Source: Rhipicephalus microplus (Eukaryota > Arthropoda > Arachnida > Ixodida > Ixodidae). Taken from it: a stretch of DNA of 64,000 bases. The DNA is taken from the NCBI RefSeq assembly GCF_043290135.1, contig NC_134701.1, positions 99,130,202 through 99,194,201 of the forward strand, in the 5' to 3' direction. This document shows positions 1-48,300 of the stretch, one piece after another. The position numbers and the translations under genes are program-made. The notes beneath the pieces are model-generated. The model was not told where the DNA came from, ran no database searches, and saw only the letters and a list, made by a program, of their open reading frames with translations. How positions within the stretch are numbered: position 1 is the first letter of the stretch; every line of letters starts with the position of its first letter.

Positions 1-1169
1 GACCAACCATTACTCCCACCAGTTGCTCTTCTAAGAGCAACAGTTACTCTTTACCGTTCCTCCCACGTGTTCGCAGTTACTCTCTGAAAACCAACTGCAC
101 CTGCTTCCAGTTACTCTTTTGGGAAATGACTATTTATCTCGAGTATGCTTGTCACATGCTTAACACATGGCGAGAGCTCCTTGGAAGAGCACTGCTTGGG
201 TGCTTCTAACACAAAAAGTGGACAATATTGAAAGGAAAATAAATGCTTTATTGTTCTTTTTATGAGGCGACGTGGGAGCACACGTAAAAGTAGACTTTGC
301 CACACCACAGCCAGCACTAAACAAGCACCATAATACATCAAAGGTTTTCTGCGTCATCCGTGGAAAAATAATCTTGAATTTCTAGCATAGGGCAGTCTGT
401 GTCATTATTGGTGAGAGAAGGGCAACTTCTCCAATGCTGAAGGACTCAAATTTCACAGCTGGCGTTTCCATCAGGCTAGCGCAAAGGAATGTCACCACAG
501 GCAGACGTGAAGCATCTCATTGCTGCAAGAAAAAAAATAGAAGTGTGAGGTTAAACATGCCAGAATCAATACATAACAATGAGTCACACACACTGCAGCA
601 GCGCTTACATTCTTGGATGGCTACTGCAAAACGAAATGTGAAAAAAAGGAAGGTTCGGCCAAACGTTACTTGGCAAGCCATATAAATGCTGATATGGTGA
701 CGCTTTTAACATGATGTCTCAGACAGCAATATTCTGGAAGAAAATGTGCAGCACCTCAACAAGGCATATTTGTAGCAGTTAAAGATACCCTTAGGTTAAG
801 TTAACTTGTTTCCTATACACAGCTGAGTAACATTTCTATGAGCCCATTCACCAATGGGCATTCTAAGGGAGATCATGTGTGTGGCAAATAACACGTACGG
901 TCCGCTCATGTTAAAATACTTATTTACCTCGTGCACATAGTTGCTCTCCATTCTACTGTTCTATCATACGCTGCTGCGTCTTGAATTGTGCAATACCTGT
1001 AGGCACAAGCCAAGCATGCAAAGCCTGCTTGAAAGCAACCATTTGCAGAGGCTACATGATAATCTTCAGTATATTTCTTTGTACCTGACGCAAACAGCTG
1101 GACAAAACTATAGACAAATAAATGTAGACCGTGCTACCTTCAAACAATGCTTTATATTTAGTAAGCTAG
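1..1169. other. Unassigned DNA left of LINE-A
   Basis: No domain, RNA gene or mobile element is recognisable here. Bases 22-41 form a perfect 9-bp hairpin (GTTGCTCTT, two-base loop, AAGAGCAAC). The first 120 bases repeat the words AGTTACTC and GTTGCTC, which also recur at 11.53-11.76 kb. A short plus-strand reading frame (434-685) is basic and matches nothing I know; I do not call it a gene. Confidence 0.5.
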
Positions 1170-1523
1170 GGTGCATTTGTTTATTTATTTTATTTTATTT
1201 ATACAATACTGCAGGCCTAGGGCGGCCCAAGCAGGAGTGGTTTGTTTGTATATCAATGGTTAAAACCAGTTTTAAACAAAAAAAATAAATACAAATTGAG
1301 AGCAAGAAGAAATAAGCAATGAACAATCGAAGAAAACACCAGAGAACAGGAGAGGACTAATCAGTGCATATTTCAGACATATGGCACATAAGAAGGTGGA
1401 AACCAAAACAGAAAAAAAGAAAAAAACGAAGCAAGGCAGCAATGATCATAACAGTAGCGTAGCACAGATTTTACACAACTAGATATGGGAAACCAATCAC
1501 AGGATAAAGGCACCATTACAAAT
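1170..1523 (-). other. LINE-A 3' UTR and simple-repeat tail
   Basis: This sequence follows the RT reading frame downstream on the minus strand. It is A-rich in the sense strand and ends in repeated TTTAT units on the plus strand at about 1173-1201. CR1/L2-type elements typically end in short simple repeats rather than long poly(A), so the terminus is placed here. The exact end base is uncertain by about 20 bp. Confidence 0.6.
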
Positions 1524-3086
1524 TTATTCTGCGAGCTGGTTAAACAACAGAAGAACATTATTTGATAAGAAGGTTTCAGATGGTAAGGCATTCCAATCAC
1601 TTATGGTGCGCGGGAAAAAGGAATGTTTGAATTTGTTTGTGCGTGCAAAAATCGAGTTAAATTTAAAAGGGTGAAAGTTCCTGGTGGGTCTATGGGGCAA
1701 AAGGTTTAGATAAGGAGCGGGGTCGAGTGCAAGTTTACGGTTCCAAAGCTGATAAAGAAATTTTAGTCTTGTTATTTTACGGCGGCTCTGTAAGGTCATG
1801 ATGTTGTTTGTTTGCTATAAAGAGGTAGGCGAGTCATGTCGGCGGTAACGATTATATATGAACCGTACAGCCAGCGTCTGAATTTGTTCAAGTTTGTTAA
1901 TGTCTTTTTTAGTGAACGGGTCCCAAACGATACACGCGTATTCAAGACGAGGCCTGATTAGCGTGTTATATCCAAGAAGTTTAACATGGGAAGGGGATTT
2001 TTTTAGTTTGTGACGTAAGAGGCCGAGCTTACGCCGTGTTGATGCACAGATTTTGTCGATATGCATTGACCAGGTTAGAATATTTGTAAATGTTAAGCCG
2101 AGATATTTAAAGCTATTGGTTTGAGAAATTTCGACTCCCTTTACAGAGTAATTGAACATAAGAGGACCTTTTTTATTAGTTATGCGCATGTACACCGTTT
2201 TAGTTTGGTTAAGCTTCATTCCCCAAATGTCGCACCAATTAGATAGTAAGTTCAGGCTGTCGTTGAGGGTAATTTGGTCATTAGTTGATTCAACAGCTCT
2301 GTACAGAAGACAGTCGTCCGCAAATAAACGAATAGCAACGCTTTCGTGCACACAAGAGGTTATGTCGTTTATATATACCAGAAATAATAAAGGCCCCAGG
2401 ACACTTCCCTGAGGCACTCCGGAGTTAACTGATCCAAGATCTGAAACGTGACTACCAACATCAACAAATTGTTTTCTATGTTCAAGGTATGAGGCAATCC
2501 ACTTTATTAGAAGATGCGGGACATTAAGTGTATTAAGTTTATACAGAAAACCTGAATGCGAAATCCAGTCTAATGCTTTGCTTAGATCTAGGAATACTGC
2601 GTCAACTTGGCCGGACTTGTCGAGAACTGAAGAAAAGGTATGCACAATAGAAACGAGTTGAGTGGTAGTAGATAGGCCCTTACGGAAACCATGCTGGAAG
2701 GGTGTTAAAATATTGCGGGAATTTAAAAAGTCGACCAGATAGTTGGAAATAATATGCTCCATGAGTTTGCTGCATGAATTGAGAAGCGAAATAGGGCGAT
2801 GGTTAGTAACGATGGCTCGATCGCCAGTTTTAAAAACAGGAACTGTACGAGCAATATGCCACTTGGCGGGGACAACACCTTCAGAAAAGGAAAGACGGAA
2901 TATAACAACTAGAAATTTAGCTATGGATTCGGCATACCGATAGAGAAACATGTTTGGAATCTTATCAGGGCCTGAAGAGGATTTCAATTTAAGATTAAGT
3001 AACATTGCAACTATTCCTTCACAACTGATAAAGTCAGAGTTTAGTGCGGTTGCATTACGTACCTCTCCAATATCATTACAAGGCAC
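1524..3086 (-). pseudogene. LINE-A reverse transcriptase (ORF2 C-terminal half), interrupted
   Basis: Non-LTR reverse transcriptase that would copy the element RNA by target-primed reverse transcription. Visible motifs in order are SSGPDKIP, HRPISLLN, a degraded motif A (LDLSKALDW), motif B (SGVPQGSVLGPLL), motif C (FADDCLLY) and the thumb signature LIRPRLEYACIVWDPF. The frame is open from 3086 to 1818, meets an in-frame TAG at 1815-1817, then continues in the same frame to 1524 with the usual C-terminal block (RTNKFKHSFFPRTISDWNALP). Upstream it should join the endonuclease, but the 3086-3170 linker is frameshifted. It is a recognisable RT with one nonsense codon and an aspartate-context change in motif A (KALDW rather than the usual KAFDxV). 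Confidence 0.9.
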
Positions 3087-3169
3087 TGAATCAGAATAAA
3101 CGGATTCAAAGAAACATTTAAATTCATTCGAAATCAGCTGTTTATCGGTTATAGATTGATTTCCTATTA

Positions 3170-4240
3170 TTATGCTATTAATGTCGTCAACCCTCTCGCA
3201 TTTAGGTGACGCCAGAATTTTGAAGGATTAGTTTTAATAAAATTAGGCAAGGTGGTGGAATAGAAAAATTGCTTACTCGCACGAATTTTATCCACTAGTG
3301 TTTGGCGCAGGGTTCTGGATAACGAATTGTTTACCTTACGTTTTTTCAACCTTTTGATCTTGCGTACTAAATGAATGATATCGCGATTGATCCACGGGTT
3401 TGCGCGGCGCACCTTCTTCGTTTTCACGGGAATAAAGTTATCGATGCAGAAATGGCAAATTGTTTGGAACTTGTCCCATAGTAAGTTAACATCGTTATCG
3501 GCGAAGTTGTCGAGTTCAAAATCTAAATAATCAAGAACACTTTCGTCGTTAGACCTACTGAAGTATTTTACAGTTTTTTTGTCGGAATCATGCCCTAATC
3601 GTCCACCCGGTTGACACGTAAAAATTACAATTTTATGATCAGACAAACCGTCTACCACTGCAACATCTGTTTCAGACAAGGTGGCACTGTAAAACACAAG
3701 GTCAAGAATTCAAGAAGAATTTCCTTGTACTCGCGTAGGGATGTTTACGGCTTGGTTAGGATTGTATGCAAGCATAATGTCGAAAACCAAGTGGTCATCG
3801 GAAGAGGGGGAAAATAAAGAGGGCCAGATAATATTTGGAAGGTTGAAATCTCCGGCAATAATAATGTTACTTTTAGAGAATCTGATTATATGATCATATA
3901 GTTTAGTCTAGAAGAAGGAATCAGCACAAGGCGCCATGTAAACCGCAATTAAAATAAATGACTTGCCATTACAGCTTATACGCAGGCATAAACTTTCATG
4001 GCCGTCAATCTGATCTAACGGATCAGCACTTACGTTACACCTAAGAACAACAGCAACACCTCCGCCGTGCGAAGGCCTGTCCCGCCTATGAATGTGGTGG
4101 GAAGGGTGAACAATATCAGAATCAGGTATTCCATCATGAAGCGAAGTCTCCGATATTACGGTCACGTCAGGATCATGGGTTAGCAAGACAGATTCGAGTT
4201 CAATAGCTTTATTTACAATGCTTCTTGCATTGATGTTCAA
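3170..4240 (-). pseudogene. LINE-A APE-type endonuclease (ORF2 N-terminal half), broken
   Basis: Apurinic-type endonuclease domain that nicks target DNA for insertion. The N-terminal block has NARSIVNK, the catalytic glutamate (VISETSL) and the GGGVAVVLR strand. After a stop near 3908 the frame resumes with AGDFNLPN (the D/N pair) around 3830. A TGA near 3712 then precedes ILDLVFYS and the SDHKIV catalytic histidine motif near 3630. The rest (3170-3590) is the basic linker between EN and RT. At least two stops interrupt the domain, but all canonical APE motifs survive, so inactivation looks like point decay rather than deletion. Confidence 0.85.
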
Positions 4241-4276
4241 AAGACAAAAATTATTCGGGGAGATGGCAGTAGATTC

Positions 4277-5182
4277 TCATGTACTGACTTCGGGGCGAAC
4301 AGTGGAATAAATTTTGACACGCGCGTTTTTCACATCATCCCAAATGTACACGTCAATGTCAATGTGAAGCTTATCGTTGAGAAGGTACACGTTTTTGCCG
4401 CTGTCTTTATCTGGTTTGGCACTTTCCCGCAGCAACTTCCTTTTTCGGAGCGTTTGCCGAGAGTAGTCGTTTTCTATGAATATCTTGGTGCCTTTCAATT
4501 TCTTTGCGTTTTTGAGGTTTTGAGGATATTCATTTTTTTGTTAAATTCTTGCAAGTACAAAATTACGGGACGACTTACACCCTCTGGACGATTTACACTT
4601 TTTTTCCAAGTCTGTGAATTCTGCCAGTTGAGGTACATTTCACACCCAACTTTTTATCAAATACTTCGCTGATTACTTGAGTATGAAGATCAGCGTCGGA
4701 TTCAATCTCTACTTCAGATATGCCAAACACCACAAGGTTGAACGCCGACTGCGATCTTCAAGATCAACAAGCTTTTCAGAGTGTTGGGTAACAGATGAAC
4801 GTATAAGCGTTAGCGTGTCATCCAAGGCAACATTGTTTGAGGGTATAGACTTCATGCTCTGAAGAGACTTGGCTACTTCGGCGACTTGAGAGTTAAGTGC
4901 GGCTATATCTTCGTTTGATGCAAGCAACTGTGCATTCAATTCAGATATCGAGTTAAAGAATTTTTCTTGTCCTTCTTGAATGAGCTTTAAAGTATCAGCA
5001 TGCGGGCCAGGGTTAGTCTCAATATCTCCACAGAGCAAGAGTTTACAAACCAGAAGGCAGTCATACACCATAGTCATACATGTCCGTGGGCACGGCAGGA
5101 TAACAAGGAACCTGTTGTTAGATCGTACCGAGCAGTAGGAACTACCAACCTGGGCAATAAACGGGACGGGCTTGGTGAGCAT
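4277..5182 (-). pseudogene. LINE-A ORF1: 2A-bearing leader, coiled coil and L1-like C-terminus, frameshifted
   Basis: The likely ORF1 start is the Met at 5182, inside the last partial monomer (MLTKPVPFIAQV). It is followed by a hydrophobic leader of about 60 residues ending in GDIETNPGP. After the 2A site comes a heptad-rich stretch of about 80 residues (isoleucine/leucine/valine spaced as in a coiled coil, about 5000-4760), then LEDRSRR, which in CR1/L2/L1-type ORF1 proteins precedes the RNA-binding core. The frame breaks at 4709. The C-terminal block reappears in another frame at 4590-4277 with RPVILYLQEF, KGTKIFIEND and basic residues, matching the end of L1-like ORF1 proteins. ORF1 proteins of this type bind element RNA as coiled-coil oligomers. 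The same frame is open upstream through all monomers to 8479, so the true start is uncertain. Confidence 0.75.
5003..5029 (-). other. 2A-like ribosome-skipping (CHYSEL) motif in LINE-A ORF1
   Basis: Minus-strand codons from 5029 to 5003 read GDIETNPGP, matching the 2A consensus D-(V/I)-E-x-N-P-G-P. It is preceded by a leucine/cysteine-rich hydrophobic stretch (LLVCKLLLC), as in known 2A peptides. In such motifs the ribosome fails to form the final Gly-Pro bond and releases the upstream peptide. 2A-like motifs are known near the N-terminus of ORF1 in APE-type non-LTR elements of several animal groups. The skip would fall between the codons at 5006-5008 and 5003-5005. It releases a leader of about 59 residues if translation starts at 5182, or a fusion of more than 1,100 residues if it starts in the first monomer. 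Confidence 0.9.
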
Positions 5183-8100
5183 AGTTGATTTCACATCGCC
5201 ATGCCCACTGAAGTAGAAGCGTTGGAGACAATGCTTTATAGCTGCTGTCGTTGGTGACGTAGTCGATCGAAGCCTCACGTATTTTTCACACGGTTGATAG
5301 GCCAGGTGATCAAACGTTGCTTCGATTCGGGGGGAGGATGAAGCAGGCATGCGCGAAGCGGGTAGCCAGAAGAAGGCTGAGCCAGGGAACGGAGGCGATG
5401 GGGGCTGTCCAGCGGAGCCAGAAAACACGCCACCGAACAGCAGCACCTGGGCAATAAACGGGACGGGCTTGGTGAGCATAGTTGATTTCACATCGCCATG
5501 CCCACTGAAGTAGAAGCGTTGGAGACAATGCTTTATAGCTGCTGTCGTTGGTGACGTAGTTGACCGAAGCGTCACGTAGTTTTCACACGGTTGATAGGCC
5601 AGGTGATCAAACGTTGCTTCGATTCGGGGGGAAGATGAAGCAGGCATGCGCGAAGCGGGTAGCCAGAAGAAGGCTGAGCCAGGGAACGGAGGCGATGGGG
5701 GCTGTCCAGCGGAGCCAGACAACACGCCACCGAACAGCAGCACCTGGGCAATAAACGGGATGGGCTTGGTGAGCATAGTTGATTTCACATCGCCATGCCC
5801 ACTGAAGTAGAAGCGTTGGAGACCCAGCTTTATAGCTGCTGTCGTTGGTGACGTAGTCGACCGAAGCGTCACGTAGTTTTCACACGGTTGATAGGCCAGG
5901 TGATCAAAAGTTGCTTCGATTCGGGGGGAGGATGAAGCAGGCATGCGCGAAGCGGGTAGCCAGAAGAAGGCTGAGCCAGGGAATGGAGGCGATGGGGGTT
6001 GTTCAGCGGAGCCAGACAACACGCCACCGAACAGCAGCACCTGGGCAATAAACGGAACGGGCTTGGTGAGCATAGTTGATTTCACATCGCCATGCCCACT
6101 GAAGTAGAAGCGTTGGAGACCAAGCTTTATAGCTGCTGTCGTTGGTGACGTAGTCGACCGAAGCGTCACGTAGTTTTCACACGGTTGATAGGCCAGGTGA
6201 TCAAACGTTGCTTCGATTCGGGGGGAGGATGAAGCAGGCATGCGCGAAGCGGGTAGCCAGAAGAAGGCTGAGCCAGGGAACGGAGGCGATGGGGGCTGTA
6301 CTGCGGAGCCAGACAACACGCCACCGAACAGCAGCACCTGGGCAATAAACGGGACGGGCTTGGTGAGCATAGTTGATTTCACATCGCCATGCCCACTGAA
6401 GTAGAAGCGTTGGAGACAATGCTTTATAGCTGCTGTCGTTGGTGACGTAGTCGATCGAAGCCTCACGTAGTTTTCACACGGTTGATAGGCCAGGTGATCA
6501 AACGTTGCTTCGATTCGGGGGGAGGATGAAGCAGGCATGCGCGAAGCGGGTAGCCAGAAGAAGGCTGAGCCAGGGAACGGAGGCGATGGGGGCTGTCCAG
6601 CGGAGCCAGAAAACACGCCACCGAACAGCAGCACCTGGGCAATAAACGGGACGGGCTTGGTGAGCATAGTTGATTTCACATCGCCATGCCCACTGAAGTA
6701 GAAGCGTTGGAGACCAAGCTTTATAGCTGCTGTCGTTGGTGACGTAGTCGACCGAAGCGTCACGTAGTTTTCACACGGTTGATAGGCCAGGTGATCAAAA
6801 GTTGCTTCGATTCGGGGGGAGGATGAAGCAGGCATGCGCGAAGCGGGTAGCCAGAAGAAGGCTGAGCCAGGGAATGGAGGCGATGGGGGTTGTTCAGCGG
6901 AGCCAGACAACACGCCACCGAACAGCAGCACCTGGGCAATAAACGGGACGGGCTTGGTGAGCATAGTTGATTTCACATCGTGATGCCCACTGAAGTAGAA
7001 GCGTTGGAGACCAAGCTTTATAGCTGCTGTCGTTGGTGACGTAGTCCACCGAAGCGTCACGTAGTTTTCACACGGTTGATAGGCCAGGTGATCAAACGTT
7101 GCTTCGATTCGGGGGGAGGATGAAGCAGGCATGCGCGAAGCGGGTAGCCAGAAGAAGGCTGAGCCAGGGAACGGAGGCGATGGGGGCTGTACTGCGGAGC
7201 CAGACAACACGCCACCGAACAGCAGCACCTGGGCAATAAACGGGACGGGCTTGGTGAGCATAGTTGATTTCACATCGCCATGCCCACTGAAGTAGAAGCG
7301 TCGGAGACCAAGCTTTATAGCTGCTGTCGTTGGTGACGTAGTCGACCGAAGCGTCACGTAGTTTTCACACGGTTGATAGGCCAGGTGATCAAAAGTTGCG
7401 TCGATTCGGGGGGAGGATGAAGCAGGCATGCGCGAAGCGGGTAGCCAGAAGAAGGCTGAGCCAGGGAACGGAGGCGATGGGGGCTGTCCAGCGGAGCCAG
7501 ACAACACGCCACCGAACAGCAGCACCTGGGCAATAAACGGGACGGGCTTGGTGAGCATAGTTGATTTCACATCGCCATGCCCACTGAAGTAGAAGCGTTG
7601 GAGACCAAGCTTTATAGCTGCTGTCGTTGGTGACGTAGTCGACCGAAGCGTCACGTAGTTTTCACACGGTTGATAGGCCAGGTGATCAAACGTTGCTTCG
7701 ATTCGGGGGGAGGATGAAGCAGGCATGCGCGAAGCGGGTAGCCAGAAGAAGGCTGAGCCAGGGAACGGAGGCGATGGGGGCTGTACTGCGGAGCCAGACA
7801 ACACGGCACCGAACAGCAGCACCTGGGCAATAAACGGGATGGGCTTGGTGAGCATAGTTGATTTCACATCGCCATGCCCACTGAAGTAGAAGCGTTGGAG
7901 ACCCAGCTTTATAGCTGCTGTCGTTGGTGACGTAGTCGACCGAAGCGTCACGTAGTTTTCACACGGTTGATAGGCCAGGTGATCAAAAGTTGCGTCGATT
8001 CGGGGGGAGGATGAAGCAGGCATGCGCGAAGCTGGTAGCCAGAAGAAGGCTGAGCCAGGGAACGGAGGCGATGGGGGTTGTCCAGCGGAGCCAGACAGCA

Positions 8101-8476
8101 CGCCACCGAACAGCAGCACCTGGGCAATGAACGGGACGGGCTTGGTGAGCATAGTTGATTTCACATCGCCATGCCCACTGAAGTAGAAGCGTTGGAGACC
8201 ATGCTTTATAGCTGCGGTCGTTGGTGACGTAGTCGACCGAAGCGTCACGTAGTTTTCAACCGGTTGATAGGCCAGGTGATCAAAAGTTGCTTCGATTCGG
8301 GGGGAGGATGAAGCAGGCTTTCGCGAAGCGGGTAGCCAGAAGAAGGCTGAGCCAGGGAACGGAGGCGATGGGGGCTGTCCAGCGGAGCCAGACAACACAC
8401 CACCGATCAGCAGCACCTGGGCAATAAACGGGACGGGCTTGGTGAGCATAGTTGATTTCACATCGCCATGCCCACT
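5148..8476 (-). repeat. Array of about 11.2 tandem 297-bp monomers at the LINE-A 5' end
   Basis: The word CAGCACCTGGGCAATAAACG recurs at 5441, 5738, 6035, 6332, 6629, 6926, 7223, 7520, 7817, 8114 and 8411 (one base differs in the 8114 copy). The spacing is exactly 297 bp, with a further partial copy at 5148. Because 297 is 99 codons, one minus-strand frame stays open across the whole array. Each unit encodes a Met followed by a hydrophobic signal-peptide-like stretch (KPVPFIAQVLLFGGVLSGSA), then a proline/serine-rich segment (QPPSPPFPGSAFFWLPASR). Units are nearly identical. Tandem 5' monomers with promoter activity are known in mouse L1, and that analogy is my inference here. Other open frames inside the array are by-products of the same periodicity. 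Confidence 0.95.
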
Positions 8477-9084
8477 CACTCGGTTGACGAGTCACAGCCA
8501 CGAGATATGTTAACGAAGCAATATATCCTAAGGCATGCACAGATATTCTTTGCATGCCTTTGTTTGACAGTGTCACAGATAGCTTGTCAATACATATATA
8601 TCTGAGAGCAACAAGATGTGAAGCTTTTATTAGTTCAATGTCTTGTTGGTTCACAGCCAAACAGGTTACTGCTCTGTTAGACTAATTGGAATAAGCGCAC
8701 CGTGGTTTCCAAAAAAAGCATTATTAGAAGTTGCTTCCCGGTGTGAATATCTGCCTATTTATTTTGTAGTGCCTTCTACATGTACCACAAAGACATTTGT
8801 TGAGGACGTGCTACCAGTCTAGCCAAGATCGCATACTTGGTCAATGTGATGGAAATACAAACATTAGAAACACTGTCACCTCTAGTAAGAGCATAACACT
8901 TCAGGATCTTAGAACAGCAAGGAGGTGCACAAGAAAGTTAAGCCCACTCTTGCAGAACTTTGAACGCGAATTTTTCAGAGTGGGGGAGGTCAACATGCTG
9001 TGGCACTTTTAAACCCATGAAACATCTGCAGAAAACAGGGTAAAGGCAAGTCAACAAACGCTGTTATGAAGGTCTGTGCATGGA
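8477..9084. other. DNA flanking LINE-A; possible 3' UTR of a minus-strand gene
   Basis: No coding domain is visible. On the minus strand an AATAAA-type signal lies at about 8757-8764 (plus-strand TTTATTTT). That would fit the 3' UTR of the tentative gene whose last exon starts at 9351. The plus-strand reading frame 8797-9012 shows no recognisable domain. Confidence 0.3.
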
Positions 9085-9352
9085 CAGCTTTGTTAATCTA
9101 GGCCCAAGTGTTATGCTTTGTGCAAGCCAAAATGTATGTAAATAGGGTAAGCGTACTTTTAGGAGCACCAGCGTAAACAAATCTTGGCAGTTGGCTTTGT
9201 AGTACAAACAGCAATCCCCAGCTTTGTTAATCTAGGCCCAAGTGTTATGCTTTGTGCAAGCCAAAATCCATGTAAATAGGGAAAGCGTACTGTTAGGAGC
9301 ACCAGCGTAAACAAATCTTGGCAGTTGGCTTTGTAGTACAAACAGCAATGCC
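9085..9352. repeat. 134-bp tandem duplication (two copies)
   Basis: Copy 1 (9085-9218) and copy 2 (9219-9352) share the run from CAGCTTTGTTAATCTAGG to GTACAAACAGCAAT with only a handful of differences (for example ATGTATG versus ATCCATG, and TTTTAGG versus TGTTAGG). The duplication ends at the plus-strand base next to a good minus-strand splice acceptor (TTTTCATTGCAG read on the minus strand at 9352-9363). Because 134 is not a multiple of three, the same DNA is read in two different frames if a transcript crosses both copies. Confidence 0.85.
9159..9351 (-). CDS. Tentative terminal exon of an unidentified spliced gene
   Basis: On the minus strand, TTTTCATTGCAG is a convincing acceptor with the exon starting at 9351. 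Depending on phase, the reading frame ends at 9293 (peptide GIAVCTTKPTAKICLRWCS) or continues through the duplicated unit to a stop at 9159. No domain is recognised. It would be joined to 9545-9623 upstream and would have a 3' UTR with an AATAAA-type signal near 8760. All of this is inference from splice-site shape; there is no homology support, and it may be chance. Confidence 0.25.
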
Positions 9353-12330: not shown

Positions 12331-13690
12331 AGCGGGCGTCCGGTTTGAGAGAAAGTCGAAAAGAGAAGAAATTCAAGCATCTTTGCGTTGCTCGGAAGGC
12401 ATGTCCGAAATACTGATGAACAAGGAAGCACTGGTGGAAATAGGCGAGCCGACAGACTCTGAAGCCCATGGCGAACGTGACAAGGTATCGGCGTCGGAAT
12501 GCTTCCAGCCAGAACGGTAGATAACACGGATATCGAACTTCTGTAACCGCAATGCCCAACGAGCGAGCCGACCATTAGGATCTTTTAGTGAAGATAACCA
12601 GCAAAGCGCATGGTGGTCTGTTACAATATCAAACGGACGTTCATATAAATAAGGCCGAAATGTTCCGATTGACCAAATAATGGCGAGGCACTCGTTTTCA
12701 GTTACACTGCAATTCTTCTCGACTTTACTGAGAGTGCGGCTGGCATATGCAACGACGTACTCGTCAAAGCCATCCTTCCGTTGGGCCAGGATGGCCTCTA
12801 GCCCGACACCACTAGCGTCCGTATGAAGCTCCGTTGGAGCAGACGGATCGAAATTTCAGAGTATTGGAGGCGTGGTGAGGAGCCGTCGGAGTTCTTGAAA
12901 TGCATCATCAAACGCCTGCGACCACGCTGAGCAATCAGAACTCCCGGCAAGAAGATTAGTCAAGGGGGCGATACTGGAGGGGAAATTGCTGAAGTAGCGC
13001 CGCAAATACGAACAAAGGCCGATGAAGCTTCGAAGCTCTTTGATGGTGGTTGGCTTTGGGAACGCCGCGACTACATTAAGTTTTGTAGGGTCCGGAAGAA
13101 TGCCGTCCTTAGAAACCACATGGCCAAGAATTGCAAGCTTGCGAGCGCCGAAGTGGCATTTCTCCAAGTCAAGTTGAAGTCCCACCGTGGCAAGGCACAT
13201 AAGAACTTGCTCGACGCGGCTGAGGTGGGTCGCAAAATCACTTGAAAGTACCACAAGCAGTCCAAAGCATCATCGAGGCGCGACGGAGGGTATGCGTCTT
13301 TGCGCGTTATCTTGTTGAGTCGGCGGTAGTCAATGCAGAACCGGATGGATCCGTCTTTTTTCTTGACGAGACCAACCAGTGAATCCCAGGGACTGTTGGA
13401 GGGCTCAATGATGCCACGTTTCAACATGTCGTCCACTTGTTCGTCGATGACACGGCGTTCATCAGATGACACATGGTACTGACGCTGTCTTAGCGGGGCT
13501 TGTTGACCGGTGTCAATAGGGTGAACGACCGCAGAGGTTCGATTTAAGCCTGACTGGTTACAATCGAATGACGAGCGAAAGCGGAGCAGAAGATTTATAA
13601 TATCTCCACGCTGAGTTGGTGCGAGCTCAGAGTCGATGGCATCCGAGATGTCCAGAACATCATTAGCCGCGTTGGTAGAAGTGACAGCAC
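12331..13690 (-). pseudogene. Gypsy-1 reverse transcriptase and RNase H with internal deletion
   Basis: The RT begins with IIEPSNSPWDS and FCIDYRRLNKITRKDAYP and reaches DDALDCL, then jumps within a codon or two to the segment normally found just after YLDD ([16 protein letters not shown]). Thus the palm with motifs A to C is missing at about 13256. The connection domain ([15 protein letters not shown]) and RNase H ([55 protein letters not shown]) follow. The enzyme cannot be active. Confidence 0.85.
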
Positions 13691-13989
13691 AAATTGGGTG
13701 CGAAACCGTAGAATCGGGTATAGTAGCCGGCAGAATGCACCCGTAAGGTTCGTAGCTTCCCAGGCATCCTTCACGTAGTAGGAATGACAAGCTGTTCGAG
13801 GGAGTGCACACATAAATGGCAGCGTGACCGTTGCAAAAAACGACGACGGCAAACGTAAGCATGATATTTCGACGGCACGCAGGTGTGGCCGTTGGCATAA
13901 ACAACACAGGCGATTTCGGAAGGGAGGCACACGGACACCGAGACAACAACAGCTGAGAAAGGCGCAATGTCCACGTCAGAAGCAGCAAA

Positions 13990-14528
13990 CACTCTACACG
14001 AAGCGCCATCGTCGGGGTCATATCATGGCACAGATAACGCGAGTTCGCAACGAGCACATTCGACCAAAGCAGAACTTGACGATGGAAGGTCCCACCCAAG
14101 GATAACATCTTACGAAGAACGGAATAAAACTACAAATGCGACGACGTACATCGCACCTTGAATGACAACTCGTGCAGTGCACAAAGCGGAAGGCTGAATA
14201 TGATGGAACGTAGCTATCTGCAAAAATAGGTCGATAAGTTGCGTGGTCACTTTCTTTAAGTTTCGGCACAGTTCTCGCTAATTACAGATACGGCAGCTCC
14301 AGTGTCAACAAGTCCGTGCACCTTAATGCCATCAATATAGAGCTCGATTTCGTTCGGGAGACAGCAGATAGGTCTTGAAATTTTTGCGGCCAACACAGTT
14401 GTTACCTCCGGAACTGTGCCTGTCAGTTTTCTCCTCGCGGTGGGCTGTTGCGATGTAACATAGGAGAAATTGATCGACGACGAGGAGAAGGTGAACGGCT
14501 TGAGCCGGATGGTTGGCGACCGAGACAT
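13990..14528 (-). pseudogene. Gypsy-1 aspartic protease (retropepsin), frameshifted
   Basis: The active-site motif LVDTGAAVSVIS is visible around 14270-14310 on the minus strand, preceded by the flap-side start IDGIKVHG. The second signature DVILGWD lies in another frame near 14100. This is the gag-pol polyprotein-cleaving protease of a gypsy element. At least one frameshift separates the two halves. Confidence 0.8.
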
Positions 14529-41566: not shown

Positions 41567-42590
41567 CTGAGCTCCGAACATCTCTAAACTCCTGCAGTAC
41601 TTCTGCCCCAGGTTCTGACCATGTGATGTATGAAATGTTAAAAAACCTACCAAACGAAACCCGAAAAACCTTACTTTGTTTGTACAATGCTATTTGGTCT
41701 TCTGGCACAATTCCTACCTCCTGGAAAGAGGCTATTGTTATTCCCATTTTGAAAGAGGGCAAGGACCCTTCTTTACCCTCGAGTTATAGGCCTATAGCAC
41801 TTACAAGCTGCTTGTGCAAAGTCTTCGAAAAAATGATAAACTGCCGACTTGTACATTTTCTTGAAACAAATAATTTGCTCGACCCATTTCAGTGCGGGTT
41901 TCGAGAAAGTAGATCCACCACAGACCACCTTGTTCGTATCGAGGCACAGATCAGAGACGCAATCGTCCATAAACAATATTTTCTCTCTGTGTTCCTCGAT
42001 ATCGAAAAGGCTTATGATACAACATGGCGTTTCGGAATTCTAAGAGACCTGTCCCACCTTGGTGTGCGCGGAAGAATGTTTCATATAATCGAAAGTTACC
42101 TGTCAAACCGGACATTCCGTGTCCGTCTGGGCAGTGTGCTCTCCCAAACATTTGTCCAGGAAACAGGCGTGCCACAAGGTGGTGTGCTTAGTTGCACACT
42201 TTTTATTATTAAAATGAATTCTTTGCACTTGTCCATTCCCTGCAATATGTTCTATTGTACATATGTTGACGACGTCGAGCTTGGCTTCAAGTCATGCAAC
42301 TTGGCCATGTGTGAGCGGCAGGTGCAGCTGGGTTTAAATAAGGTCTCCAAATGGGCAGATGAAAACGGATTTCGAATTAACCCACAAAAAAGCACGTGTG
42401 TCTTGTTCTCTCGAAAGAGAGGCATGCACTCGGAGCCCGACATTCAACTGAACGGGCAACAACTGTCCGTCAAAGCTGAGCATAAATTCTTAGGCTTAAT
42501 CTTGGACAACAAGTTGACCTTCGTACCCCACATAAAGTCTTTAAAAACAAAATGTTTAAAAGCCATGAATGTTATAAAAGTGTTGTCACG
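41567..42590 (+). pseudogene. LINE-B ORF2 reverse transcriptase, cut by the CR1 insert
   Basis: RT motifs in order: SAPGSDHVMYEML, SSYRPIALTSCLCKVFEKM, FLDIEKAYDTTW (motif A), GVPQGGVLSC (motif B), CTYVDDVELGF (motif C) and FLGLILDNKLTFVPHIKSL. The frame is open to about 42590 (NVIKVLS), where minus-strand CR1 sequence begins. The thumb continues after the insert at about 43687 (WGSDRKCLMNLYRSLIRTRL). Confidence 0.93.
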
Positions 42591-46442: not shown

Positions 46443-48300
46443 TTGCGCAAGCGCATAGCCAAGCTGAACAAACAGATCGAAGAACATTGTAAGCAGCTAA
46501 GCAAACAGCAATGGGACCAAGTTTGTAAAAGTCTCAATGGCCAAATGAATGCTGTTCAGACATGGCGCATGCTCAAACACCTGCTAGACACAGATAACAC
46601 CAAATCAGCACACAAGCAAACCTTGCGTAAACTGGTGCACCGGTATAACGGCAGTGAGGAGGACTTTATCGCTGTGGCTAGCAACACGTACATTCCCGCC
46701 ATGCCTGTCATAGAGCACGGACCATATTCTGGAGGCCCGAACGAGCTCTTAGATGAGGAGCTTACTGTGGCTGAAATCAGGGCTGCGCTACAGAAGCTAA
46801 ACACCAAATCTGCACTGGGACCAGACGGGATCACTAAGAGAAAACTACGGAACCTTGACGACCAAGCCATAGAGAACATCACGCAATATATTAACGAGTG
46901 CTGCACCGAGGGCACTACACCAAAACAGTGGAAAAAAGCTAAAGTAATTCTCATCACCAAGCTCGGGAAACCCCCCGATATATCGAATTTACGCCACAAA
47001 TCACTAACTTCTTGTGCTGGGAAGCTGATGGAACACGCTTTTCTAGACAGAATCAACACTTATCTTGAGACGAACGAAATCTACCCAGATTCCATGTTGG
47101 GGTTCTGCACACGGCTATCAACGCAAGACGTCATGCTGCAAATTAGGCAGCAGATTCTCGACAACAAAACAAGAGCTACTCGGGCGATCTTAGGATTAGA
47201 CCTTGAAAAAGCCTTCGACAAAGCATCGCCTATGGCAATATTGCATCAGATCTGCCAATTGAGCTTAGGATCTAGAGCGTATAACTATGTCAAGGAATTC
47301 CTAACAGACAGAACAGCATCCATTGTAATGGGAGAACTGAGATCTGAGGAAAGGCTTATGGGGAGTGCTGGTACCCCGCAGGGTTTGGTCATATTGCCAA
47401 TGCTATTTAATCTCATATAGATAGGACTCCCAGCACGACTGAACTCAATATACGGAATACATCATTCTATATATGCAGATGATATCACCATCTGGGTGTG
47501 TGAAGGTAGTGACGGAGAGATATAGCAGACACTACGGGAGCGTGTCACCACTATTGAGGAGTATCTTGAAGGTACTGGCCTCGAGTGCTCGCCAGATAAA
47601 TCCGAACTCCTCCTCTATCGCCCCACGCCTAAAGGCAGACAACTCAAGGGATACAACCAGGACCGTGCTTACGAAGAGATCCAAATTCACACCAAAAACG
47701 GCAGGACTATATCTATAGTGCAACAAATCAGAGTCCTTGGACTCATCATCGAGTCTAAGGGTACAAATGGTGAAACCGTCAAGAGGTTAGTAACCAAAGT
47801 CGCCAATGCAATACGGCTAATCAAGAGAGTCACAAACAAACACAAGGGCATGAAAGAGGCTAACGCCATCAGGCTTATTTATTCTTTCGCCATAAGTCAT
47901 ATTATATACGTAGCGGCATATCTAAACTGGTATACAGCCGAAAAACTCAAAATCAACGCACTCATACGAAAAGTGTACAAACAAGCTTTAGGCCTTCCAG
48001 ATAGCACCAGCATCAAAAAACAGTTTCAACTGGGCTTACATAACACTTTAGAGAAGCTGATAGAAGCGCAACAGATTGCCCAGTTGGAGAGACTAGCCAG
48101 CACGCGCACAGGACGGTGTATCCTTGACAAGTTGGGGATAAATTACCATAGTCAACAAGGAAGTAAAGTGTCGGTTCTCAAGGTGATCAGCGAAAAGATC
48201 CAGGTCCCCAATCTGCACAAAAACATGCATCCCGAACATAATCAGGGCAGAAGAGAAAGCAGCGCCAGAACTATACTTAAGGCCTACGGCAGAGACAAGG
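46443..48300 (+). pseudogene. LINE-C reverse transcriptase
   Basis: The open stretch 46443-47420 contains the linker (Lys/Gln-rich), TVAEIRAALQKLNTKSALGP with DGITKRKL, TPKQWKKAKVILITKLGKPP, LTSCAGKLMEHAFLDRI, motif A (LGLDLEKAFDKAS) and motif B (SAGTPQGLVILPMLFNLI). A stop at 47420 follows. Motif C (IYADDITIWV) is at about 47470. Later blocks include IRVLGLIIESKGTNGETVKR and the thumb in the open frame 47718-48359. Frameshifts and stops fall between 47420 and 47720. Confidence 0.92.

What the first reader, a model, noticed from the sequence alone, without database searches (positions are those of the whole stretch)
5003..5182. A 2A ribosome-skipping motif ends the ORF1 leader of a CR1/L2-group LINE
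Seen directly: codons for GDIETNPGP preceded by a Leu/Cys-rich hydrophobic stretch, upstream of a coiled-coil ORF1. Known: 2A-like sequences have been reported in ORF1 of APE-type LINEs, and some 2A leaders double as secretory signals, so that skipping decides where each product goes. Inference: this element would make a short hydrophobic leader peptide and a separate ORF1 protein from one start. A signal-like leader joined to 2A suggests dual targeting.
Basis: partly seen in the sequence, partly recalled or inferred. Interest (0 to 1): 0.9.

Follow-up and report, generated by a model that had tools for sequence, protein, structure and literature searches.

The report
2A site after in-frame promoter repeats
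In a jumping element of the cattle tick, a 2A "skip" site sits where a stack of repeated promoters, all readable as protein in one frame, meets the first gene, so the cell could make that gene's protein with the same beginning however many promoter repeats are transcribed.

Summary
The motif is real, on the minus strand: window 5182-5003 encodes a 60-aa leader ending GDIETNPGP, before a coiled-coil ORF1. The core is conserved in tick LINEs (128 of 185 retrieved proteins perfect, x free), and LLLCG-D fits an L-rich StopGo class tested in vitro. By itself: a new member of a known kind.

Array 5' ends lie within two bases of the Inr in 24 of 29 arrays. In five further families of the same genome, found by DNA similarity at the 2A region, 20 of 20 monomers are multiples of three and 19 stop-free, though their middles are unrelated. 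Monomer ORFs begin hydrophobic, signal-like.

Best reading: 2A severs a variable-length, promoter-encoded N-terminal extension, giving ORF1p one N-terminus. Promoter use, skipping and targeting are inferred. Against: in the window's own family only 7 of 13 arrays read into the 2A from the last upstream monomer, 4 from the first; short upstream AUGs precede the start; within-family substitution data show no selection.

The parts
5003..5029 (-). 2A/StopGo core with preceding Gly: GDIETNPG|P
   Evidence: core perfect in 128 of 185 retrieved proteins
5003..5182 (-). leader: 60 aa from the last ATG to the 2A Pro; L-rich StopGo context YDCLLVCKLLLCG
   Evidence: leader about as conserved as ORF1 in protein pairs
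5148..8476 (-). array of 297-bp promoter/coding monomers (11.2 copies by TRF); array 5' end at 8476 = Inr +1
4709..8491 (-). continuous 1260-aa open frame through all monomers, leader, 2A and ORF1 start
5182..8449 (-). twelve ATGs, one per unit (A of ATG at 8449, 8152, 7855, 7558, 7261, 6964, 6667, 6370, 6073, 5776, 5479, 5182), each at +28 from the inferred start site
5205..5240 (-). core promoter of the last monomer: TATAAA from 5240 (-31), Inr TTC|AGTGGGC with A(+1) at 5209; same layout at the 10 other internal units
4710..5002 (-). start of ORF1 (coiled coil) after the 2A; frameshifted in this copy near LEDRSRRS
   Evidence: fold of the homologue P0003 matches human L1 ORF1p
3908..4276 (-). 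ORF2 endonuclease-like fragment
   Evidence: PF03372, below curated cut-off
1815..3227 (-). ORF2 reverse transcriptase fragment
   Evidence: PF00078
1178..1205 (-). A-rich run, probable 3' end of the element; no target-site duplication found

Best explanation
This is the 5' half of a decayed tick LINE in which promoter and coding sequence are the same DNA. Each tandem monomer carries a TATA/Inr promoter whose start site lies at +1 of the next unit, and an ATG at +28 whose frame runs through the later monomers into a short leader and a 2A site. Transcripts can start at any unit, so the mRNA carries 0 to n monomers, and the first AUG with a long frame leads into ORF1. Translation makes an N-terminal extension of variable length; at NPG|P the ribosome skips, releases the extension with the leader, and makes ORF1p with a constant N-terminal Pro. 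The extension begins with a hydrophobic, signal-like stretch, so it may be sent to the ER, leaving ORF1p in the cytosol. Shown from sequence: array, promoter elements, open frame, conserved 2A, array 5' ends on the Inr. Inferred: promoter use, AUG use, skipping, fate of the extension.
For: (1) 2A: 128 of 185 proteins perfect, with 11 different residues at x and G before the core in 126 of 128; L-rich context of a class tested in vitro for viral sites. (2) Promoter: TATAAA at -31, Inr, ATG at +28 at all 11 internal units of the window; TATA-like box at -31/-30 and Inr-like start in internal units of families B-F (TATGAA in one L041 unit, TTTGAA in L047), ATG at +28 in A-E. (3) Start site: 24 of 29 arrays end 5' within two bases of the Inr A, with unrelated flanks and 1 to 12 units. 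(4) Frame: of 17 distant loci found by DNA similarity at the leader/2A region, 12 hold upstream units (three too degenerate to anchor, two without units); 20 of 20 units are 3n long (294, 267, 255, 270, 255 bp by family), 19 of 20 stop-free. Middles of A-F: 14 of 15 pairs within the range of 20 shuffles; joint chance of the open frames 6e-10 if independent, about 3e-8 without family A. (5) Across ticks: of 58 records (57 proteins, window) with the start-site tag (GHG or variant), 55 have Ile exactly 10 codons before it, the shadow of T-ATA-AA. (6) 51 of 75 database tick proteins with a perfect core carry the tagged in-frame extension. (7) Hydrophobic start in 37 of 37 monomers.
Against: In family A only 7 of 13 arrays with an upstream unit read into the 2A from the last upstream monomer, and 4 of 13 (window, L025, L027, L032) from the first (read from ORF lengths; the script's own frame flag was misplaced). 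26 of 42 units are intact; 8 of the 16 broken ones carry a 1-nt indel in one C6 run, seen in 5 insertions. These copies may be dead, but frame keeping is not strict in the genome. In family A two short upstream AUGs (+8, +14, the first a 3-codon ORF) precede the +28 ATG (sequence). In other tick proteins the distance from tag to Met varies, so +28 is not universal. Synonymous excess inside family A is alike in private (33 of 89) and shared (8 of 20) changes, so it is no proof of selection. Monomer protein evolves faster than ORF1 in most close pairs, e.g. 0.70 vs 0.84. Protein-based counts favour open frames by design. No expression, start-site or translation data.
Confidence: 0.65

Rival explanations
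1. Plain leader-2A-ORF1 LINE: translation starts only at the last ATG, the monomers are non-coding promoter repeats, and their open frame is accidental or inherited by recent duplication.
For: Inside one array copies are near-identical, so one open unit makes all open. Many family-A arrays are out of frame upstream. Mouse L1 has tandem promoter monomers in its 5' untranslated region (PMC10620060 passages).
Against: Six families with unrelated monomer middles are all 3n long and open in the copies examined; in the B-E units printed the first AUG of a transcript is the +28 ATG, except the last unit of L044 which has CATGG.
Confidence: 0.2
2. The extension is itself the point: a secreted or membrane-directed polypeptide, with 2A partitioning products between ER and cytosol as in sea-urchin NLR leaders (dual targeting). 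Compatible with the best explanation.
For: Monomer ORFs start with the most hydrophobic stretch of the unit in 37 of 37 cases, also in the subfamily whose start moved to MQV. Precedent PMC4981915 (introductory section and passages).
Against: Outside start and promoter the monomer protein is poorly conserved; no signal-peptide predictor was available; no localisation data. By frame, frame 0 is clearly most hydrophobic in B and C only; in A, D and E another frame comes close.
Confidence: 0.3
3. The 2A is inactive in ticks and ORF1p is made as a fusion.
For: No activity was measured here; one copy with full-length ORF1 has NHGP (L032).
Against: Core nearly invariant while x varies; tested class of upstream context. 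Recalled: active 2As in CR1/L2 LINEs (Odon 2013, not held).
Confidence: 0.07

Closest known systems
2A/StopGo sites of APE-type LINEs (Odon et al. 2013, seen only as a citation in PMC4981915 and PMC12846837; text not held)
   Same: D(V/I)ExNPGP in a LINE with AP-type endonuclease
   Different: Here the 2A closes a frame that runs back through tandem promoter monomers; I saw no report of that, but could not read this paper
Mouse L1 monomer promoters (PMC10620060, passages read)
   Same: variable number of tandem monomers, each adding promoter activity; daughters carried fewer monomers than donors
   Different: mouse monomers are ~200 bp of 5' UTR with YY1 sites; here monomers are 3n, open, in frame with ORF1, with TATA/Inr, and lead to a 2A
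Sea-urchin NLR 2A signal sequences (PMC4981915)
   Same: N-terminal hydrophobic leader joined to 2A; dual targeting tested in cells
   Different: cellular genes, single leader; here a LINE with a repeated promoter-encoded extension
T. cruzi L1Tc with Pr77 promoter and 2A (PMC4748587, passages)
   Same: internal 5' promoter and an active 2A in one LINE
   Different: single 77-nt promoter that also forms an HDV-like structure; Rfam finds none here; no tandem units mentioned in the passages seen
Human L1 ORF1p (PDB 2yko)
   Same: coiled coil, RRM, CTD: Foldseek E 2.9e-8, TM 0.70 by target, 0.50 by query
   Different: 17% identity; L1 ORF1p has no 2A (recalled)

Membership tests
2A/StopGo recoding site | core (D/G/C/N)(V/I)ExNPGP | tested here: met
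   DIETNPGP, 5026-5003 minus
2A/StopGo recoding site | recognised upstream context | tested here: met
   KLLLCG-D fits L-rich motifs 2/6 ending (A/S/C)G with p12=D as described in PMC12846837; judged by eye, not by FIMO
2A/StopGo recoding site | conservation of the core in functional relatives | tested here: met
   128 of 185 proteins; 7 of 8 own-genome copies with intact ORF1
2A/StopGo recoding site | skipping activity | not testable with these tools
   needs a translation assay
non-LTR retrotransposon (APE-type LINE) | AP-type endonuclease plus RT | tested here: met
   PF00078 E 4e-31; PF03372 E 2e-4, below curated cut-off
CR1/L2 clade | position in an RT tree | not tested
   no reference RT set was used; recent activity of CR1, I and L2 clades is reported for Ixodes scapularis (PMC4748124 passage)
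L1-type ORF1p | coiled coil + RRM + CTD fold | tested here: met
   AlphaFold2 model of homologue P0003, mean pLDDT 85.5; all 10 PDB matches with E up to 0.001 are human L1 ORF1p
tandem-monomer LINE promoter | tandem units each with core promoter elements | tested here: met
   (consensus elements only)
tandem-monomer LINE promoter | transcription from the monomers | tested here: inconclusive
   24 of 29 array 5' ends lie within two bases of the Inr; no RNA data
2A dual-targeting leader | signal-sequence function when not skipped | not testable with these tools
   only hydrophobicity

The most novel reading that the evidence does not exclude
Tick LINEs have fused promoter and polyprotein: every promoter monomer is also a coding module that starts with an ER signal, the array is kept in frame by selection, and the 2A makes ORF1p independent of how many modules are transcribed. 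More generally, one role of 2A in LINEs may be to cut off peptide encoded by an internal promoter.
Probability: 0.45. Interest if true: 0.85.

Novelty: new variant of a known kind. Interest (0 to 1): 0.72.

Why it matters
LINEs need an internal promoter that is itself transcribed, and repeated promoters bring repeated upstream AUGs that should block ORF1. An in-frame array closed by a 2A would solve both problems at once and could explain why 2A sites sit at the N-terminus of ORF1 in some LINEs. It also gives a clean test: in 2A-bearing LINEs, promoter monomers should be 3n long and stop-free; in LINEs without 2A they need not be. Many tick 'uncharacterized proteins' in databases are these LINE frames.

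Tried and rejected
Coincidence of the motif: rejected. Ribozyme or other known RNA in window 1000-9000: two weak Rfam matches far below gathering scores, neither a ribozyme. Target-site duplication: none found, best shared word 8 nt at unfitting offsets. Selection inside family A from synonymous excess: first looked positive for the window's 11 monomers (15 of 33 synonymous vs 27% expected, p 0.018), but private and shared changes behave alike in 42 monomers, so I do not use it. Reading the conserved SGHG as a protein motif: set aside in favour of the transcribed start of the Inr, because the DNA shows (A/T)GTGGGC at a fixed distance from TATA while the residues between vary. Monomer protein as a conserved domain: not supported. 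Monomer DNA pattern in prokaryote contigs: none. More copies of this LINE elsewhere in the window: one 44-bp match and three other RTs only. Odds changed on rechecking: best explanation 0.68 to 0.65 and plain-leader rival 0.18 to 0.20, because of the upstream AUGs of family A and the count of arrays open from their first unit.

Full report
WHAT IS THERE. The finding's coordinates are exact but the strand is minus. Minus 5182-5003 codes for a 60-aa leader ending GDIETNPGP, then a coiled-coil ORF1 start. It is the only DxExNPGP in six frames of the 64 kb. ORF2 pieces lie downstream: endonuclease-like at 4276-3908, RT at 3227-1815, and an A-rich run at 1205-1178 that may be the 3' end. ORF1 and ORF2 of this copy are broken by frameshifts, so this copy is dead. 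The window lies in a 3.26-Gb assembly. One of its contigs has the same length (513,293,480) as the contig listed for a Rhipicephalus microplus protein (P0073), so I take the species to be R. microplus; a protein listed under R. microplus (P0071) is 91% identical to the monomers.

IS THE 2A REAL. Three protein searches (the last listed 120 of its 135 hits) gave 185 distinct records; every one that bears an organism name is from a tick. 128 of 185 have a perfect (D/G/C/N)(V/I)ExNPGP. Of the other 57, nine print an altered motif, two (P0031, P0057) a partial one, and one (P0023) has lost the region, by my reading of the listing; the rest do not show it. In the first two searches alone 38 of 45 true regions are perfect; six further rows of that script are false matches (P0023, 29, 33, 47, 50, 59). 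The free position x takes 11 residues; the two residues before the core are CG, SG, GG or AG in 126 of 128. PMC12846837 (sections 10 and 14 read; passages) defines, from viral sites, L-rich upstream motifs that end (A/S/C)G before D, and reports that a motif-6 example works in reticulocyte lysate. KLLLCG-D fits. In the own genome, 15 regions were fetched with long flanks: 13 leader ORFs reach the motif, 9 read GDIETNPGP, L023 keeps the core after R instead of G, L032, L033 and L035 are altered; 7 of the 8 copies with an intact 298-299 aa ORF1 keep the core.

WHAT WAS MISSED. Upstream lies an array at 5148-8476 of 11.2 copies of a 297-bp unit. The minus frame is open through all of it into the leader, 1,260 aa. 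Each unit has an ATG in that frame. Each of the 11 internal units has TATAAA at -31, the initiator TTC|AGTGGGC, and the ATG at +28. The array's outer end, 8476, is exactly that A(+1), with no TATA before it. In 29 arrays (15 of family A, the window's family; 14 of families B-F) the outer end lies within two bases of +1 in 24; exceptions are L023 (13 nt further out), L033 (degenerate), L050 and L051 (cut inside a monomer) and L048 (unresolved). In L039, L043 and L049, counted among the 24, a second short copy of the transcript start precedes it. Arrays with 1 to 12 units share this end. The simplest reading is that the RNA starts at the initiator of whichever unit fired.

IS THE OPEN FRAME MORE THAN ACCIDENT. 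Protein searches favour open frames, so I used DNA. One search listed 17 distant hits (72-76% identity) at the leader/2A region; all 17 were fetched. L036 and L046 have no readable core, and L037 has no Q-V anchor: these three were dropped from unit counting. L048 and L049 have no upstream unit. The other 12 hold 20 units in five families (my labels): B 294 bp (L038, 43, 44, 45), C 267 (L039, 47), D 255 (L040, 50, 51, 52), E 270 (L041), F 255 (L042). Units were found by ungapped matching of a 66-nt piece, without regard to frame. All 20 are multiples of three; 19 are stop-free, L043 has one stop. Outside promoter and start, 14 of 15 pairs of A-F are alike no more than 20 shuffles; C-F slightly exceeds them. 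Chance of an open frame under dinucleotide shuffling is 0.05-0.13 each; joint with the one-in-three length rule 6e-10 if the families are independent, about 3e-8 if family A, which drew my attention, is left out. TATA-like boxes (TATAAA, TTTAAA; one unit each with TATGAA and TTTGAA) and the start site sit at the same place in A-F; the ATG is at +28 in A-E and lost in F. No other AUG precedes it in the printed B-E units except the last unit of L044; in A, two do (+8 and +14, the first a 3-codon ORF).

ACROSS TICKS. 58 records (57 proteins and the window) carry a start-site tag (GHG or a variant) 55-95 aa before the core; 55 of 58 have Ile exactly ten codons before the residue that starts the tag, 52 with K, N, R or S next: the protein shadow of TATAAA about thirty nucleotides before the start. 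The distance from tag to Met varies between proteins. Seven proteins with long extensions lack the tag. Of 75 database (NCBI, UniRef, nr; my hand list of 80, five without perfect core) tick proteins, 51 have the tagged in-frame extension, 44 of them 70 aa or more before the tag; 13 start near the leader start, 7 inside the leader, 4 otherwise. Thirteen proteins and the window show two or more tags 86-107 aa apart. In 19 of 19 and 18 of 18 hand-chosen monomers the first part is the most hydrophobic; in one subfamily the Met has moved to 'MQ(V/D)' yet a hydrophobic start follows. ORF1p itself is predicted to fold like L1 ORF1p.

RESULTS AGAINST. Family A is leaky: 7 of 13 arrays with an upstream unit read into the 2A from the last upstream monomer, 4 of 13 from the first (from ORF lengths). 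26 of 42 units are intact; 8 of the 16 broken ones carry an indel in one C6 run, which may be slippage or assembly error. No stop is shared between insertions, but the C-run deletion occurs in five. Synonymous excess is alike in private and shared changes, so it shows no selection. Protein identity is lower in monomers than in ORF1 in most close pairs. No RNA or protein data were available.

HOW IT LIKELY WORKS. Shown from sequence: the parts and their spacing. Inferred: RNA polymerase II starts at the initiator of any unit; the AUG at +28 is used; the ribosome reads the remaining monomers and leader; at NPG|P it releases the extension and continues with ORF1p. The 2A then removes a length-variable tail that the promoter array forces on ORF1. 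The signal-like starts suggest that the extension goes to the ER.

WHAT IS KNOWN. 2A in APE-type LINEs is known (Odon 2013; recalled, and cited in PMC4981915 and PMC12846837; not held). Dual-targeting 2A leaders are known in sea-urchin NLRs (PMC4981915). Tandem promoter monomers, with fewer in daughters than in donors, are known in mouse L1 (PMC10620060, passages). Ten literature searches showed no title or abstract start on in-frame promoter monomers closed by a 2A in the parts listed (for example 20 of 169 and 15 of 562 papers); most subscription papers are not in that library. Hence: new variant of a known kind.

Noticed in passing
P0065 and P0073: ORF1 with monomer from Haemaphysalis longicornis and R. 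microplus are 89% identical, monomer as similar as ORF1: possible horizontal transfer between tick genera, or contamination.
   Followed up: no
window 5149-5147 minus; A1 column V210: Leaders begin with Val right after the shared Gln (Val 13 of 13, Gln 12 of 13 rows; P0087 has Glu instead of Val); in the window this is CAG|GTT, a splice-donor-like word exactly where monomer and leader diverge. Unexplained.
   Followed up: no
L039, L043, L049 5' ends: The first ~15-33 nt of the transcript appear twice in a row at the outer end of the array, as if reverse transcriptase jumped at the RNA 5' end; a possible way arrays grow.
   Followed up: no
P0115, P0120, P0123, P0125, P0127, P0135, P0136, P0140: A subfamily in which the first Met is at MQV or MQD, after the usual start, and the signal-like stretch follows it.
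   Followed up: partly
family A monomers, C6 run (position 145 of the unit): One-nucleotide indels in 8 of 42 monomers from five insertions: slippage or assembly error.
   Followed up: partly
L040 516-1870 (oriented): This copy lies inside an ORF with zinc-knuckle-like motifs, probably of another retroelement, and the frames happen to join (by eye).
   Followed up: no
window 12373-14129 minus: RT and RNase H-like pieces that look like a Ty3/gypsy element (by eye).
   Followed up: no
window 41602-42543 +, 43688-42972 -, 46656-47603 +: Three more LINE-type RT stretches, 24-46% identical to this element's RT.
   Followed up: no
window 9085-9349: 134-bp direct duplication.
   Followed up: no
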